From NCBI GenBank assembly GCA_938010495.1, contig CALLUT010000017.1, positions 1 to 6,338 of the forward strand: 6,338 nt of DNA, read 5' to 3'. The translations under genes and the position numbers were made by a program. The notes beneath the pieces were generated by a model. It saw only the letters and a program-made list of their open reading frames with translations, did not search any database and was not told where the DNA came from. This DNA comes from Candidatus Absconditabacterales bacterium. Lineage in GTDB: Bacteria; Patescibacteria; JAEDAM01; Absconditabacterales; Absconditicoccaceae. Shown in pieces: positions 1 to 6,338 of the stretch (position 1 is the first letter of the stretch; each line of letters starts with the position of its first letter).

Positions 1-3000
1 TTAATGATTGTGACGATGCAGATGGCAATAACTATCCTTGAAATACAGAAATTTGTGATGAGCAAGATAACGATTGTGATGATCTAATCGACGAAGATGC
101 AACAACTGATTACTATTTAGATACAGATTGAGATGGATTTAGTGATTGAACAATTGCTTCTCAATGTACTCCACCAGCAGACCACTATACTGCTGATGAG
201 TTGAAAATTCAGGCACAATCAACAACAATAACTGATTGATTAGTTGCAAGATATAGTTTTGATAATTGAGATGCTACGGATGATATTTGATCAAGTGATT
301 GAACATTAAATTGAGTAACTTCAAGCTTTGATAGTATCTCAGGTAAATCAATGTACTTTGATTGAACTGCTAATCACAATATTACTATTGCAGATAATGA
401 TGATTTCGATGTGGGTCCATGAGAACCTAAAACATATAGTATGTGGGTTAAAAATACTGATCCAGCAAATAATAGATGAACATTATATACAAAAAGAGTA
501 AATACTGATACAAGATGATTTTATTTGCGTTATGATTTGAGTAATACAAATCTTAGTTTTGCGTGAAGATATGACTGATCATATGCAGCATGAAGTATAT
601 GAAATGCTTGAAATGCTTGAGAATGGCATCATGTAGTATGAATTCTTGATGGTAATGGTACAATGTCATTATATTCTGATTGAGGTTTAGTTTATTCAGT
701 TGCATATGATCATACACTTGATTATTCAAATGATTGAATTGCTACTCTTTGATATTGATCTCCAGATTCTTTTAAATTCCAAGGATATCTTGACGAAGTA
801 CGTATCTACAACCGTGCTTTACAAACTTCTGAAATAGCAGAACTGTACAATGCTTCAACTGGAACGTTCCCAAGTGGTGAATGTAATGATGCAGATGCAA
901 CTGTTCATCCTTGAGCAACTGTTTTATGTTGAGATACAATTGATAATAATTGTGATAATAACATTGATTATAAGCATGGATCACCTGCAGTAGTACAATG
1001 TGAGTTCTGTGATCACTATCAACTTTCAGTACCTTATGATGAGTGTAAGGCCTTAGAGGCAGTATATACTTCAACATGATGAGATACTTGGACAGATAAT
1101 ACTTGATGGTTAACTGATCCTGATATCAGCAACTGGTATTGAGTTAGCACAACAACCATTGCTTCACAGCAACATGTTGATGGCTTAACATTTAATGCTA
1201 CCGCAGATTGTTGATCAGAATCTGATTCATACGCAAATGGTCTTTCTTGAACATTACCAGCTGAAATTGAAGCCTTACAAGAACTATCTGTATTATGTCT
1301 AAATGGTAATTCAATTACTTGAGAACTACCATCTACTATGCAGACTCTAAGCAAGTTAGAAAAATTATTGCTTCATGATAACTTAGTAACTAAGATACCA
1401 GCTTGGATTTGATCATTACAAAATTTAAATTGGTTATCAATGCCAAGTAATAATATGACAGGAACTATTCCTTCTTGAATTTGGACTTTACCTGATTTAT
1501 CGAGATTAGTACTTAGGGATAATCCTTCATTAGATGTTTGGACATTACCACTAGATCTTTCATTGTTAGTTGATATTAAGTTGATTGATGTAAATAATAC
1601 TAATTTGGAATGAATAATTCCTGATACAGTATGAAATCAAACTTGATTAGTATGAATCGATTTTGGATCTAATAACTTAGAATGATCAGTACCAACTTCC
1701 TTCACTAACTTGAATGCTACGACATTGTCATTAAGACTTAAGAACAATAACATAAATCGTGATGCTGATCACAATGCGATATTTAATCCTGCAGCACTTC
1801 AAACATGGTTTGATTCTGTATTAACTAAAGAGGTTGATACTCAATCAGATGTAACACCACCATTTATCGATACAACAGATAAAATTCCTGCTGTAATGAC
1901 AGCACCAATTGTCTATGATATAACAATAGATGAAGCATCATATGCGATTGCATGAGACAATTCTGAATCTTGAGCTGTTAATGGTGAATGAATGTCTGTT
2001 GAAATTACTTGAACATCTATTGATTGAACTACATGTACAAACTTATCATCGACTGATGTTATGGTATCTAATTGAACTGCTTCATTAACAATAACTCCAT
2101 TAGCGAGTTGAGTATATGAAGGATGTTTATTGCAAGTAAGAGATCATTGAAATAATCTTTCTAATACTGTTACACTTAGTACAGTATGTTCTGATCCTGC
2201 ATTAACTATACCTCAAAGTGAATGTATAGCCCTTACAGAATTCTTCGTGTCAACAGATTGATTTAACTGGACAGATAATACAAACTGGTTAACAAGTCCT
2301 GATGTAAACACATGGTTTGGAGTTACCTCTGATAGTAATGTTAAAGAAATTGTATTATCATCAAATAATTTATCTTGAACAATTCCATCTACTGTTAGTA
2401 ACTTAATAAATTTAGAAAAATTACAACTTTCTATAAACCAACTTAATTGAGTAGTTCCATGAATTTTGTGAACAATAAATTCCCTTGAGATACTTCAATT
2501 GTCTACAAACTCCTTCAGTTCAATTGAATCTTGAATAGAAGATGGACAAAATTTAACTAACTTAGATATTAGTTTTAACCAATTTGTTTGAACAATTCCA
2601 TCATGGTTAGGTACTATGAATTTAGAAAAGTTAATCTTAAATGAAACGTGATTTACATGAGCTATTCCATGAGAATTAGGAAATATTAGTTCTTTAATAG
2701 AACTGGAAATCTCTTGAACATGAATAACATGAGAAATACCATGAGAATTATGAAGTTTATCAAATCTAGAAGTGCTAAATATTTCCTGAACTTCTATTGA
2801 ATGAACTATCCCATTACCATTTACTTGATTAGTTTCACTAAATGAATTGTTAATAGAATCAAATAATTTAGATCGTGATGAAAATCATGAAGCTATTATA
2901 CCTTCTTCACTTTCAACATGGGTACTAGGTGTAACAGATGAATTATTGCTTGGGAACCAATGAGATATAACTATCCCAACAGTATCATGATCTTCAAATA

Positions 3001-6000
3001 CACACTTCTCATTAACTGATGATATTTCTTTAACATTCACAATTAATGAAAATTCCTATGCGATAGCATGAGATAATTCTGAAGCGTGAGCAGTTAGTTG
3101 AGAATGAATGCCAATTACTATTTCTGGTCCAGCAGTTTGTAGTAATTTAACTTCAAATTGAATTACTGTAAATAATTGAGAAACAACTATTTCACTATCG
3201 AGCAGTGTTGATTGACTATATGATTGATGTGAATTTACGGTAACTGATCATGGTGACAATGATTCATTATCAAGCATTACTATGGATGCATTCTATCTTG
3301 GTTCTCAACCTTCAGATATCTGTTTCCATCCTTGAATAACAGTTCCTCAAATTGAGTGTGAAGCTCTTGCAGAATTATACTCTAATACGTGATGATCTAG
3401 TCGATATGACAATACATGATGGTTTGAAACTATTGATCTAAATAATTGGTATTGAATTACAGTTTCTTCAGTATGATGAATTGATCATATAACTGAAATT
3501 TCGTTACCAACAAATAATGTTCAATTTGCTCTTCCTGCTGAACTTTCAGATTTGACTGAAATAACAAGTATGAACTTTATGGGTAATATGATTACAGATA
3601 TTGAGAGCTGATTTAGTACAAATTCATCTGTAGAAATCATAAATCTTCAAGGAAATCAAATTGTAACCTTGCCAAGCGATCTATGATCAATGACAAACTT
3701 ATCTTCACTCAATATTTCTAACAATCTTATAGAAATGTTGCCTGGTTCAGTTTGATGACTGGATAGTCTTGATGTTCTTAATATTAGTAACAATAAACTA
3801 AACGCATTGCCATCACAAATATGATCACTTCCTGAACTTGATAATTTAGATATTTCTTGAAATAGAATTTTATCAATTCCTTCTGAAATAGGTCAACTCT
3901 TAGACTTAGACATTTTAGATGCAAGTGATAATAAATTACAAATTCTACCAAGTACATTTGGAAATCTTATTGAACTTGAAACATTGAATCTTTCATATAA
4001 TCAATTTAGTAGTGTCGCTTGAACGTTGTCATGACTCACACAATTGGCTATCTTAGACCTATCTAATAATATTTTGAGTTCAATGGACTCAACAATTACA
4101 TGATTGACAACATTGATTTCTCTTTCATTAGAAAATAATCAAATATCATCTATTGATACGTGAATATGAGCTATGAGTCTCCTAGAATATCTTAATATTG
4201 AAAATAACTCGTTAACACTTATCCCTGACGAGATATGATCATTACAATCATTAGAAGAATTAAATATCTCAAGCAATCAATTAACTGAAATTCCAACAAC
4301 ACTTTGAACTTCAACAACATTAGAAAAATTATATGCTTCAAACAATGAAATTATATTGTTGCAAGACTTTATTGGATCAATAACTTCATTGAAACAACTA
4401 TGGCTCAATTGAAACGATCTTCATGAATGAATTCCAGACAGCTATGCAAACTTAACAAATCTAACAAGGTTTATTGTTTCAAATAATTATCTTGACCGTA
4501 TTATTGGTAATACAGCATATGTTCAGCCTGTTCTGCAATCATGGGTATCATGACAATTATGATTTGATCTTGGACCACAACAAGATGATACAGCTCCAGT
4601 TATTGTTTGATCTTGAACAATTATTGATCCTTCTCCTTCAATACCTTATCAAATTGCTGTTGATGAAAATTCTTATGCAGTAGATGTAAATTGAGACTGA
4701 TTGAGTTTTGTCTTTGCTTGAGGTAATAATTGTACATTATTATGAGCAGTAGTGGATGCTACTTCAAGAGACACAATTGATGAAAATTTCTGAGCATTTG
4801 ATATTACTATAGCTTCTGCAACAGATGCATATTTCGAAAATTGTACGATGCAAGTAGAAGATCATTGAGGAAATATTTCAAATCCAATTGTTTTATGAAG
4901 TTTCCAATTAAGTAATTCAATAGAAACATTTTGTGCTCATCCAAATCTATCAATTCCAGAAAGTGAATGTGATGTACTTTACGAATTATATACTACTACT
5001 AATTGAGAATCATGAGGATGGGACAATGATGTTAACCGGTTTACATCGTTGAATGTAGAAAATTGGTTCTGAGTTTCAACATGACCAATAGGATCCAATC
5101 CTAAAGAACATATAACTTGATTATACCTGCACAAGGATGATTGAATTGATGAATTTGGACCAACAGCAAATTGGGATTGAAATAATATTATTTGACCATT
5201 CCCAGAGACGATATCAAATCTTCAACACATAGTAGATATGAATTTGAGTAATAATCAAATCACATGAGAGATCCCTTCAACAATTTGATGACTGTCTTCT
5301 TTAGAAGAGTTTTGGATGAGAGATACTTTCTTGACAGGAGAAATACCTGCTAGTTTCTGAAATCTTTCTTCAATAGAAGTATTCTGGATTGAATGAAATT
5401 CACTTACATGAGAACTTCCAACAGAATTTTATAATGCTACATGATTAAAAGTTCTAAACCTTAGTAATAATTCTTTTGAATGAGACTTAGAAAATAACCG
5501 AGATTCATTTACTTGAATAACATATATTAAACTATCTTGAAATGAATTTACATGAGAGTTACCTTCTTCTCTATGAAGTAATTCATGAATAACACATTTA
5601 TACTTGGATAATAATAACTTTGTTTGATCTGTTCCAAGTGAGTACAATACATGATTGAGCAATGCTACATTAAATTCATTTGCTATTAACAATAATAACT
5701 TAGATCGTTTAAATAACTTTGATGCAGAATTAACTCCAGCGCAAGTAACTTGGTTCTCTTGAATATTATGAACTGCATCAATAAATAATCAATGAGATAT
5801 TTCAGCGCCAGTAAGTGCATGATCATGATCAATTCCATTTGATGTAGTGAGCACTGCTTCATATGATGTGACAGTTACTGAAAATTCATTTGCTGTTGAT
5901 GCTCAATGATCATGAATGGTATTAAACGCAACCTGATCACCAATTTGTGAGTCATTAACATTCTCTGAGGTGGTTTGGAACGATTGATCTACTCAAGTTG

Positions 6001-6338
6001 TTACTCTTACTCCAGGATTGACGTGATTATATAACTGATGTAGTGTATCACTCTCAGATCATTGATGAAATATTTCAAATACATTTATGCTCCCTGTATT
6101 CTGATTTGATTTATGAGAAGCAGAAGTGTGTTTTGAAGGTAATCTATCGATACCACAAAATGAATGTCTAGCCTTACTTTCATTGTATCAAGATACTGAT
6201 TGAGAAAATAGTCGATCAAATACAACAAACTGGTTTGATGAAACTGTAACTGATGTGAATACATGGTTTGGTATAGAAACAGAACCTGTATGAGTTGATG
6301 GACAACACCATGTTACAAAAATTCTTCTTCATAGAGAT
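1..6338 (+). CDS. Giant modular LRR/Ig-like/LamG surface protein, partial at both ends, genetic code 25 (TGA=Gly)
   Basis: One reading frame (first full codon at base 3) is free of TAA and TAG for 2112 codons, through the last base. It contains about 150 TGA codons by hand count, against about 45 GGN, so TGA supplies roughly three quarters of glycines. Domain order: MopE-type metal motif, DxDGDG segment, LamG-like domain, second MopE-type motif, then four full modules of LRR N-cap, LRR block, C-cap and Ig-like domain, and the start of a fifth. TGA falls on family glycines such as the xGxIP of plant-type LRRs. Neither start nor stop is in the window, so signal peptide, membrane anchor and total length are unknown. 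Cys pairs and extracellular domain types imply export. Likely role, by inference: adhesin or surface fibre for cell contact. The reading frame is near certain; the function is a guess. CGA/CGG codons at 3402, 5037, 5499 and 6213 may encode Trp, not Arg. Confidence 0.96.
3..173 (+). other. MopE-type metal-binding motif plus DxDGDG calcium-like segment (residues 1-57)
   Basis: Residues 1-32 show the DCDDADG...YPG(TGA)...EICD..DNDCDDLIDED pattern. This is characteristic of the putative metal-binding motif found in MopE-like and many bacterial surface proteins (Cys 3, 18 and 25; many Asp). Residues 36-57 then show YY-x-DTDGDGF, whose first glycine is TGA and second is GGA, and a later Cys-x-P-P. 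This segment normally precedes a motif of the first kind. An Asp-rich loop like this usually binds calcium; binding is inferred from the family, not shown. The motif is probably the end of a longer run of such motifs upstream of the window. Confidence 0.8.
231..857 (+). other. LamG-like (concanavalin A-like lectin/glucanase fold) domain, residues 77-285
   Basis: The domain opens with the typical GLVARYSFD strand (residues 79-87), followed by D...G..NG (99-104) and a K-S-M-Y-F-D-G strand (115-121). A central Y-S-M-W-V-K strand (145-150), an EWHHVVG strand (residues 207-213) and the diagnostic ending Y-L-D-E-V-R-I-Y-N-R-A-L (262-273) with SEIAELY (276-282) complete it. About 200 residues is normal for the family. 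Many of its glycines (79, 89, 96, 100, 104, 121, 140) are TGA; reading them as stop or Trp would destroy the fold. LamG-like domains in secreted bacterial proteins often bind glycans or calcium, but no specific ligand can be read from the sequence. Confidence 0.9.
879..971 (+). other. Second MopE-type metal-binding motif (residues 293-323)
   Basis: The pattern E-C-N-D-A-D-A-T-V-H-P-G-A-T, then C-G-D-x-I-D-N-N-C-D-N-N-I-D, matches the same family as residues 1-32 (Cys 294, 309 and 317). The glycine of the conserved PGAT is TGA (codon 304). It follows the LamG domain directly, and its usual upstream partner (YYxDxDGDG...C..P) lies on the other side of that domain at residues 37-57. The LamG domain therefore appears to sit between the two halves of one motif unit. 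Confidence 0.8.
999..1823 (+). repeat. Module 1: LRR N-cap, plant-type LRR block and C-cap (residues 333-607)
   Basis: The N-cap has C336-x11-C348, then A-L-E-A-V-Y, W363-x5-W369 and W378-Y-G-V. This resembles the N-terminal cap seen in plant receptor-like and bacterial plant-type LRR proteins (ALLALY...W...W.GV). About seven to eight LRRs follow (residues about 413-585), mostly of the 24-residue plant-type class with L-S-G-T-L-P or L-x-G-x-I-P. Ladder Asn are at 436, 460, 483, 507, 557 and 582, with Thr at 533. One repeat is irregular (about residues 508-533, 26 residues). The block closes with N-x-N-R-D (R586) and Trp 602, the C-cap shared with the other modules. TGA fills xGxIP glycines 416, 440, 537 and 561. 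The fold is a solenoid, typically used for protein or glycan binding. Confidence 0.9.
1857..2183 (+). other. Ig-like beta-sandwich domain 1 (residues 619-727)
   Basis: The domain begins after a Pro-rich linker and has a beta-strand-like E-A-S-Y-A-I (644-649), a glycine-rich loop ending G-E-G-M (661-664), Cys 678 and a strand-rich stretch. It ends with Y-E-G-C (Cys 708) and the strand V-R-D-H-G-N-N-L-S-N (712-721). The final DHGxNxS resembles the D-x-AGN-x-S strand common at the end of bacterial Ig-like domains. The exact Pfam family is not recognised; the Ig-like assignment is inference from strand pattern, length of about 105 residues and position between LRR solenoids. C678 and C708 may form a disulfide. 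Confidence 0.65.
2187..2921 (+). repeat. Module 2: LRR N-cap, plant-type LRR block and C-cap (residues 729-973)
   Basis: The N-cap has C729-x11-C741, W756-x5-W762 and W771-F-G-V; here the FGV glycine is GGA, whereas the same position is TGA in modules 1, 3 and 4. Eight LRRs follow at 23-24 residue spacing. Ladder positions are Asn 788, 812, 836 and 859, then Thr 882, 906 and 930, then Asn 954. Motifs such as L-S-G-T-I-P and I-T-G-E-I-P recur, with TGA in most glycines. The repeats around residues 882-930 are nearly identical (G-E-L-G and G-E-I-P-G-E-L-G), suggesting recent duplication. The C-cap is N-L-D-R-D (955-959), then Trp 973. Confidence 0.9.
2976..3299 (+). other. Ig-like beta-sandwich domain 2 (residues 992-1099)
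   Basis: This is a close copy of Ig-like domain 1: E-N-S-Y-A-I (1016-1021), then A-G-D-N-S-E-A-G-A-V-S-G-E-G-M (1022-1036), Cys 1046, Y-D-G-C (Cys 1076) and V-T-D-H-G-D-N (1080-1086). The Cys spacing (30 residues) and the E-to-second-G spacing (19 residues) are the same as in domain 1. Of the loop glycines, residue 1033 is TGA where domain 1 has GGT (661), a direct internal equivalence of TGA and a glycine codon. A possible disulfide links 1046 and 1076. Confidence 0.65.
3321..4544 (+). repeat. Module 3: LRR N-cap, long 23-residue LRR block and C-cap (residues 1107-1514)
   Basis: The N-cap has C1107-x11-C1119, then W1140 and W1149-Y-G-I. The first Trp of W-x5-W is replaced by a CGA codon (residue 1134). 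The LRR block differs from the others. Ladder Asn recur at exactly 23-residue intervals from 1172 to 1471 (14 positions, 69-bp period), with one 24-residue step to Asn 1495. The consensus is L-P-S-x-I-G-x-L-x-x-L-x-x-L-x-I-S-x-N, without the xGxIP of plant-type repeats except in the last one (E-G-I-P, 1475-1478). This is the bacterial and animal 'typical' LRR class. The C-cap is L-D-R (1497-1499) and Trp 1514. The block is about 150 residues longer than its siblings. Confidence 0.92.
4584..4907 (+). other. Ig-like beta-sandwich domain 3 (residues 1528-1635)
   Basis: It starts with D-T-A-P-V-I (1529-1534), then E-N-S-Y-A-V (1555-1560), and has a shortened loop V-N-G-D-G-L (1562-1567). Cys 1577, Cys 1614 and the strand V-E-D-H-G-G-N-I-S-N (1618-1627) complete it. 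The loop between the E-N-S motif and the glycine is eight residues shorter than in domains 1 and 2, while the inter-Cys segment is longer (37 residues). Family not identified with certainty. Confidence 0.65.
4932..5753 (+). repeat. Module 4: LRR N-cap, plant-type LRR block and C-cap (residues 1644-1917)
   Basis: The N-cap has C1644-x11-C1656, W1673, and a CGG codon (1679) at the second position of W-x5-W, then W1688-F-G-V. The LRR block (about 1703-1902) returns to the plant-type 24-residue class: I-T-G-E-I-P, L-T-G-E-I-P, L-T-G-E-L-P and F-T-G-E-L-P, with TGA or GGA glycines. One repeat (1824-1847) lacks the Pro and carries a CGA codon (1833) at a hydrophobic core position. Ladder positions include Asn 1847. 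The C-cap is N-L-D-R (1899-1902) and Trp 1917. From about residue 1780 to 2004 I count no GGN codon at all; every glycine there is TGA. Confidence 0.9.
5799..6110 (+). other. Ig-like beta-sandwich domain 4 (residues 1933-2036)
   Basis: The order is the same as in domain 3: I-S-A-P-V (1933-1937), E-N-S-F-A-V (1960-1965), the short loop D-A-Q-G-S-G-M (1966-1972), Cys 1982, Y-N-G-C (Cys 2013) and L-S-D-H-G-G-N-I-S-N (2017-2026). Both Gly of the DHGG motif are consecutive TGA codons. It shares the short-loop form with domain 3, whereas domains 1 and 2 have the long loop. The Ig-like fold is inferred. Confidence 0.65.
6129..6338 (+). repeat. Module 5: LRR N-cap and start of LRR block, cut by the window end (residues 2043-2112)
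   Basis: C2043-x11-C2055, A-L-L-S-L-Y (2057-2062), then a CGA codon (2071) in the first and W2077 in the second position of W-x5-W, and W2088-F-G-I identify a fifth LRR N-cap. The FGI glycine here is GGT. Residues 2101-2112 (Q-H-H-V-T-K-I-L-L-H) match the first LRR strand of module 4 (H-I-T-G-L-Y-L-H, 1703-1710). The protein clearly continues beyond the window. Confidence 0.88.

What the first reader, a model, noticed from the sequence alone, without database searches (positions are those of the whole stretch)
3402..6215. CGA/CGG codons appear to be read as tryptophan as well
There are only four in-frame CGR codons. CGA at 3402 (residue 1134) and CGA at 6213 (2071) replace the first Trp of W-x5-W in caps 3 and 5. 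CGG at 5037 (1679) replaces the second Trp in cap 4. The partner Trp is TGG in each case and the spacing is exactly six in all five caps. CGA at 5499 (1833) lies at a buried LRR position where neighbours have F, I, L or W. In contrast, of the seven CGT codons, four are in the invariant L/N-x-R of the C-caps (586, 958, 1499, 1902) and two in the LamG E-V-R-I-Y-N-R motif (267, 271); the seventh is in a LamG strand. From memory, a published codon screen proposed CGA/CGG to Trp in some Absconditabacteria; if so, this protein is an internal test of it and would favour that lineage.
Basis: partly seen in the sequence, partly recalled or inferred. Interest (0 to 1): 0.9.

Follow-up and report, generated by a model that had tools for sequence, protein, structure and literature searches.

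The report
Two arginine codons read as tryptophan
In this fragment of a giant, probably surface-exposed protein the codons CGA and CGG, which almost everywhere mean arginine, most likely mean tryptophan, as already proposed for a group of tiny uncultured bacteria; fresh comparisons with related genomes back that reading strongly.

Summary
Observation confirmed. The window is one open frame (TGA = Gly) with four CGR codons: three on conserved Trp columns of the LRR N-cap, one on a hydrophobic LRR column. In homologues those cap columns hold W in 395/398 and 368/398 caps, R in none. In 42 complete caps from eight related unnamed TGA=Gly genomes, 29 of 35 CGR codons lie on the three Trp columns, against 0 of 41 other Arg codons. 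In three such genomes, of 381 CGA codons 170 face only TGG and 1 only Arg codons; of 35 CGG codons, 16 and 0; outside relative G443 gives 0 and 5 of 14 CGA. Analysed CCG tRNAs of that order are Trp-type (30/30), UCG tRNAs have G73 in 33/34; outside the order UCG tRNAs have A73 (8/8). CGA/CGG encode the nearly invariant Trp of TrpRS in three of these genomes. Shulgina & Eddy 2021 predicted this code for Absconditabacteria, so the principle is known and the window is a new member. Possibly new: in relative G461, CGA alone outnumbers TGG (177 vs 119 homology-aligned codons).

The parts
3..6338 (+). Open reading frame without start or stop in the window, TGA read as Gly (148 TGA); MopE-type metal-binding motifs, LamG-like domain, then N-capped LRR blocks
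1035..1190 (+). LRR N-cap 1 (approximate span); Trp codons TGG at 1089, 1107, 1134
2211..2370 (+). LRR N-cap 2 (approximate span); Trp codons TGG at 2268, 2286, 2313
3345..3515 (+). LRR N-cap 3 (approximate span); CGA at 3402 in Trp column 1, TGG at 3420 and 3447
3402..3404 (+). CGA, residue 1134, read as Trp
4956..5130 (+). LRR N-cap 4 (approximate span); TGG at 5019, CGG at 5037 in Trp column 2, TGG at 5064
5037..5039 (+). CGG, residue 1679, read as Trp
5499..5501 (+). CGA, residue 1833, at the hydrophobic position of an LRR; read as Trp
6153..6338 (+). LRR N-cap 5 (approximate, cut by the window end); CGA at 6213 in Trp column 1, TGG at 6231 and 6264
6213..6215 (+). CGA, residue 2071, read as Trp (one extra residue before it)

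Best explanation
The window comes from a bacterium that uses the predicted Absconditabacteria code: UGA = Gly, CGA and CGG = Trp, CGU/CGC/AGA/AGG = Arg. CGA and CGG are read by tRNAs with anticodons UCG and CCG that carry Trp-type acceptor ends (mostly A/G1:U72, with G73) and are probably charged by the single TrpRS. In the window the four CGR codons are therefore Trp codons, on the conserved Trp or hydrophobic columns of a giant capped-LRR protein. Shown: the codon columns in window and relatives, the codon alignments, the tRNA ends in relatives, one TrpRS per relative. Inferred: that the window's genome has those tRNAs, that TrpRS charges them, that the protein really carries Trp.
For: Homologue caps: W1 is W in 395/398, W2 in 368/398, R 0. 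One cap of G434 has CGA at all three Trp columns. Codon alignments with shadow ORFs removed: of 381 distinct CGA in G446, G400 and G461, 170 only with TGG and 1 only with Arg codons; of 35 CGG, 16 and 0. tRNAs of the order: CCG 30/30 A1:U72 G73, as in the two tRNA-Trp CCA genes seen; UCG 33/34 G73, 27 of them with A/G1:U72. The nearly invariant Trp column of TrpRS (W 25, Q 1 of 29) is CGA in G438 and G408, CGG in G425. One TrpRS over cut-off in 29 of 30 genomes searched. CGA differs from TGG at two bases, so a single W to R change or a single read error does not explain three CGA.
Against: No genome is held for the window, so its tRNAs and housekeeping genes were not seen. One CGA in G400 aligns only with Arg; 210 of the 381 CGA codons face neither TGG nor Arg alone but other residues or other CGR codons. 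Six of 35 CGR codons in related caps are off the Trp columns, and one CGA in the TrpRS of G434 is at a variable column. One UCG tRNA in the order (G481) is Arg-like; it lies on a contig of GC 0.32 with almost no in-frame TGA in a bin whose readable contigs are mostly GC 0.21-0.24, so it looks like a contaminant. tRNA position A20 was not determined. No charging or proteomic data.
Confidence: 0.95

Rival explanations
1. CGA/CGG are ordinary Arg codons and the caps of this one protein have drifted from Trp to Arg at three conserved positions.
For: The window alone cannot exclude it; the Fisher test inside the window gives only p = 0.0017 (3 of 4 CGR against 0 of 21 other Arg codons).
Against: R is absent in 398 homologous caps at both columns; other Arg codons never sit on those columns in 42 related caps, 0 of 41; CGA needs two base changes from TGG.
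Confidence: 0.03
2. CGA/CGG are read ambiguously (Trp and Arg) in this lineage.
For: Cannot be excluded from sequence; some cross-reading between tRNAs of the CGN box is possible (recalled).
Against: Only 1 of 381 CGA and 0 of 35 CGG codons align solely with Arg in three genomes of the order; the only Arg-like UCG tRNA found there, of 34, is on a likely contaminant contig, and 0 of 30 CCG tRNAs are Arg-like.
Confidence: 0.02
3. The window belongs to a TGA=Gly relative outside the order (Gracilibacteria-like), where CGG may be Trp but CGA is Arg.
For: A high TGA share of Gly (148 of 193, 77%) is also seen outside the order, e.g. G443 76%. Capped LRR proteins as such are widespread: they occur in many phyla and in the standard-code G001 of the same class.
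Against: In G443 CGA aligns with Arg (5 of 14) and never with TGG, while the window's three CGA codons are on Trp or hydrophobic columns. Of the TGA=Gly genomes outside the order, the four LRR loci scanned (L089, L098, L090, L096) gave no complete three-Trp cap, only a partial HMM hit in L089. High TGA share also occurs inside the order (TrpRS genes of G429 0.88, G434 0.72, G438 0.72).
Confidence: 0.08

Closest known systems
CGA and CGG to Trp reassignment of Absconditabacteria (Shulgina & Eddy 2021, PMC8629427; abstract, section 11 and passages seen)
   Same: UGA = Gly, CGA and CGG = Trp, low GC, AGA as main Arg codon, UCG and CCG tRNAs with Trp-like identity
   Different: Here tested inside one repeated protein motif, on TrpRS, and on UCG/CCG tRNAs from 43 of the 49 genomes of one order. 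One genome, G461, has CGA at 59.4 per 10,000 against TGG 39.9; they report CGA under 37 in all species (other counting method), though one of their assemblies already has CGA 30 plus CGG 24 against TGG 35
NCBI genetic code 25 (SR1 and Gracilibacteria, UGA = Gly)
   Same: UGA = Gly, 148 codons in the window
   Different: Table 25 keeps CGA and CGG as Arg, so under it the window would be mistranslated at four residues
CGG to Trp in Anaerococcus and in RFN20 Bacilli (same paper)
   Same: CGG read as Trp by a CCG tRNA with Trp features
   Different: CGA stays Arg there; other phylum

Membership tests
Absconditabacteria CGA/CGG = Trp code | UGA read as Gly | tested here: met
   148 in-frame TGA, frame open through the window; in relatives TGA aligns mostly with Gly codons, e.g. 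883 of 1197 in G446 against G400
Absconditabacteria CGA/CGG = Trp code | CGA at conserved Trp columns | tested here: met
   Two of three window CGA on cap Trp columns, the third on a hydrophobic LRR column
Absconditabacteria CGA/CGG = Trp code | CGG at conserved Trp columns | tested here: met
   The only window CGG is on cap Trp column 2; a single case
Absconditabacteria CGA/CGG = Trp code | UCG and CCG tRNAs with Trp identity in the same genome | not testable with these tools
   No tRNA in the window, no genome held; Trp-type ends found in relatives, position 20 not checked
Absconditabacteria CGA/CGG = Trp code | Low GC and Arg mainly by AGA | tested here: met
   GC 0.315; AGA 12 of 21 Arg codons when CGR is set apart
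Absconditabacteria CGA/CGG = Trp code | Taxonomic placement in the group | tested here: inconclusive

The most novel reading that the evidence does not exclude
In part of this order the reassignment has gone past rarity: in the sampled part of G461 CGA alone is the commonest Trp codon (177 CGA and 15 CGG against 119 TGG in homology-aligned codons; 708, 102 and 681 in a looser longest-ORF count), so a former arginine codon has become the main tryptophan codon. Outside the order, two genomes (G385, G421) have a Trp-type CCG tRNA and no UCG tRNA matching the pattern used, and the G421 sample has almost no CGA or CGG, which would fit CGG being captured before CGA.
Probability: 0.75. Interest if true: 0.5.

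Novelty: new member of a known kind. Interest (0 to 1): 0.42.

Why it matters
Sense-codon changes are rare in bacteria, and in the papers I saw this one rests on computation only. A repeated motif with three fixed Trp columns gives a clean internal test, and the capped LRR proteins of this order offer many peptides with CGA/CGG at such columns for proteomics. Translation with table 25 puts Arg where these bacteria most likely put Trp. A genome in which CGA exceeds TGG would show how far such a change can go.

Tried and rejected
Searches for TGA=Gly genomes in a draw of 379 genomes of the phylum and an EF-Tu search in 24 of them identified none: one search listed only its best 150 matches, so such genomes may have been hidden there; the pattern had hits in 0 of 379; one search showed one match with a single TGA and otherwise none. 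The class search found TGA inside the RpoB match in 26 of 117 genomes; 7 of the 117 had no RpoB match.

L003, the best locus from a candidate-phyla genome (it is the only Gracilibacteria record among the loci), has no in-frame TGA in its capped LRR gene and was dropped as a code model.

The first codon alignment used every stop-to-stop frame and showed AGG-TGG and extra CGG-TGG pairs, and 3 of 100 and 2 of 104 CGA facing Arg; I read these as antisense frames over Pro codons (CCN). After removing shadow ORFs AGG-TGG pairs fell to 0. Counts are not used.

The first TrpRS alignment picked wrong frames for minus-strand loci and was redone. The one search list covers only columns with more than 15 sequences; one CGA in the TrpRS frame of G453 falls outside those columns. 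Of 167 cap-HMM hits, 146 lie outside the window; 104 of these lacked at least one Trp column and were set aside, among them a G471 hit with CAG in column 2.

The Arg-like UCG tRNA of G481 was first taken as a transitional state, then rejected as a likely contaminant contig. G421 gave 1 CGA and 3 CGG in 11,934 codons, too few to tell their meaning.

LRR loci of G409 and G450 (outside the order) look like another type without a complete three-Trp cap.

Full report
The observation. The window carries one frame open from base 3 to 6338 when TGA is read as Gly. It has 2112 codons, GC 0.315, 148 TGA, 28 TGG, 3 CGA, 1 CGG, 7 CGT, 0 CGC, 12 AGA and 2 AGG. Pfam finds MopE-type motifs, a Laminin_G_3 domain and many LRRs. 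Five N-caps share W-x5-W and a third Trp; CGA replaces W1 in caps 3 and 5, CGG replaces W2 in cap 4, and W3 is TGG in all five. In cap 5 the HMM is off by one because of an extra residue.

Is it more than chance? At least 3 of 4 CGR codons on the ten W1/W2 columns has a chance of about 3e-7, with the columns named after the fact; against the 21 other Arg codons of the window the Fisher p is 0.0017. In 120 homologous proteins found by sequence (the best 120 of 565) a regex found 398 caps: W1 is W in 395, W2 is W in 368, R in neither. These proteins were found by similarity to the window, whose query stretch has TGG caps, so the set is not fully unbiased; 107 of the 120 hold caps, up to 9 each. 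The LRR position of CGA 1833 is hydrophobic in all but 9 of 3357 homologous LRRs, with W 10 and R 0.

Related genomes. No genome is held for the window. The order around G446 holds 49 genomes, and 21 of them match the window protein. I fetched 20 LRR stretches from nine of these genomes. With a cap HMM built from 397 homologue caps and CGA/CGG masked, 42 complete caps were found outside the window, in eight of the nine genomes (G468 gave none): on the three Trp columns TGG 96, CGA 23, CGG 6, TAT 1. CGA and CGG fall on these columns in 29 of 35 cases, the other Arg codons in 0 of 41 (Fisher p about 2e-15). Six CGR codons lie on other cap columns. A cap of G434 uses CGA for all three Trp.

Housekeeping test. 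I compared 363-400 kb each of G443, G446, G400 and G461 codon by codon, with CGR masked and antisense shadow frames removed. Distinct CGA codons facing only TGG / only Arg codons: G446 56/0 of 123, G400 38/1 of 111, G461 76/0 of 147. CGG: 4/0 of 10, 5/0 of 11, 7/0 of 14. The remainder face other residues or other CGR codons. G443, outside the order, gives 0/5 of 14 for CGA and 1/0 of 3 for CGG. CGT faces TGG in 2 of 511 aligned cells in the three order genomes and in 0 of 98 in G443. In a TrpRS alignment of 29 genomes, 13 of them in the order, one Trp column is W in 25, Q in one, CGA in G438 and G408 and CGG in G425 (all three in the order). In the columns where Arg is the commonest residue by far (84, 199, 326, 364), CGA/CGG occur only in genomes outside the order. 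One order genome, G434, has a CGA at a variable column.

tRNAs. A pattern search and ARAGORN gave UCG and CCG tRNA genes; not every pattern match was fetched, and 43 of the 49 genomes of the order are represented. In the order, 30 of 30 analysed CCG tRNAs have A1:U72 and G73, as do the two tRNA-Trp CCA genes seen there; 33 of 34 UCG tRNAs have G73, 27 of these with A/G1:U72 and 6 with G1:C72. The exception lies on a likely contaminant contig. Outside the order, 8 of 8 UCG tRNAs have A73 (two of the eight from genomes without TGA in RpoB, G001 and G411); of 5 CCG tRNAs 3 have A73 and 2 (G385, G421) are Trp-type. In G446 the CCG tRNA resembles its own tRNA-Trp most among the tRNAs compared (50 of 72 positions); in G400 the nearest is a tRNA-Gln, so a single parent is not shown. 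One TrpRS passes the cut-off in 29 of 30 genomes; G001 had none, and four genomes have a weak second match under the cut-off. That TrpRS charges both extra tRNAs is inferred.

Where the window belongs. The protein matches members of the order, though capped LRR proteins are widespread, and its CGA use fits what I saw only in that order. Its TGA share of Gly is 77%, nearer to G446 (0.63) and to the TrpRS genes of G429, G434 and G438 (0.72-0.88) than to G461 (0.26).

What is known. Shulgina and Eddy 2021 predicted CGA and CGG to Trp in Absconditabacteria, with consistent tRNAs, and CGG to Trp in some Gracilibacteria (section 11 read whole). A 2026 paper repeats it for Absconditabacterales (passages). 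A 2023 paper on phages of these groups and the 2021 Vampirococcus genome paper hold no CGA or CGG in their main text (term searches). The listings of searches showed me no experimental proof.

What may be new. In homology-aligned codons of the sampled part of G461 (105 ORFs, 29,789 codons) CGA is the commonest Trp codon: 177 CGA, 15 CGG, 119 TGG, or 59.4, 5.0 and 39.9 per 10,000; a looser longest-ORF count gives 708, 102 and 681. The paper reports CGA under 37 per 10,000 in all its species, with a different counting method, but also one assembly where CGA plus CGG (30 and 24) already exceed UGG (35). I saw no statement of CGA alone exceeding UGG in what I read. In G421, outside the order, CGA and CGG are nearly absent (1 and 3 of 11,934 codons) although a Trp-type CCG tRNA is present.

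Noticed in passing
window 3-6338: The frame is open at both ends: part of a giant repeat protein of at least 2112 residues with MopE motifs, a LamG-like domain, and capped LRR blocks joined by a recurring domain with an E-x-S-[YF]-A motif; a surface adhesin is my guess.
   Followed up: partly
G461 (L349-L368, L259-L262): CGA outnumbers TGG as Trp codon in homology-aligned codons (177 against 119).
   Followed up: yes
L341 (G481:C58): Likely contaminant contig with an Arg-type UCG tRNA in a TGA=Gly bin; could mislead a tRNA-only survey.
   Followed up: yes
G446, G400 and G461 UCG tRNAs (L119, L229, L309): These UCG tRNAs have G37 and a body unlike tRNA-Trp, while the CCG tRNAs of the same genomes have A37; the two extra Trp tRNAs may have different parents.
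   Followed up: partly
UCG and CCG tRNA genes of the order: Most of the 64 genes analysed in the order do not encode the 3' CCA, whereas the 13 analysed outside the order do.
   Followed up: no
output: Stop-to-stop frames without shadow removal create false TGG/AGG/CGG equivalences, probably through antisense Pro codons; a trap for codon-reassignment screens.
   Followed up: yes
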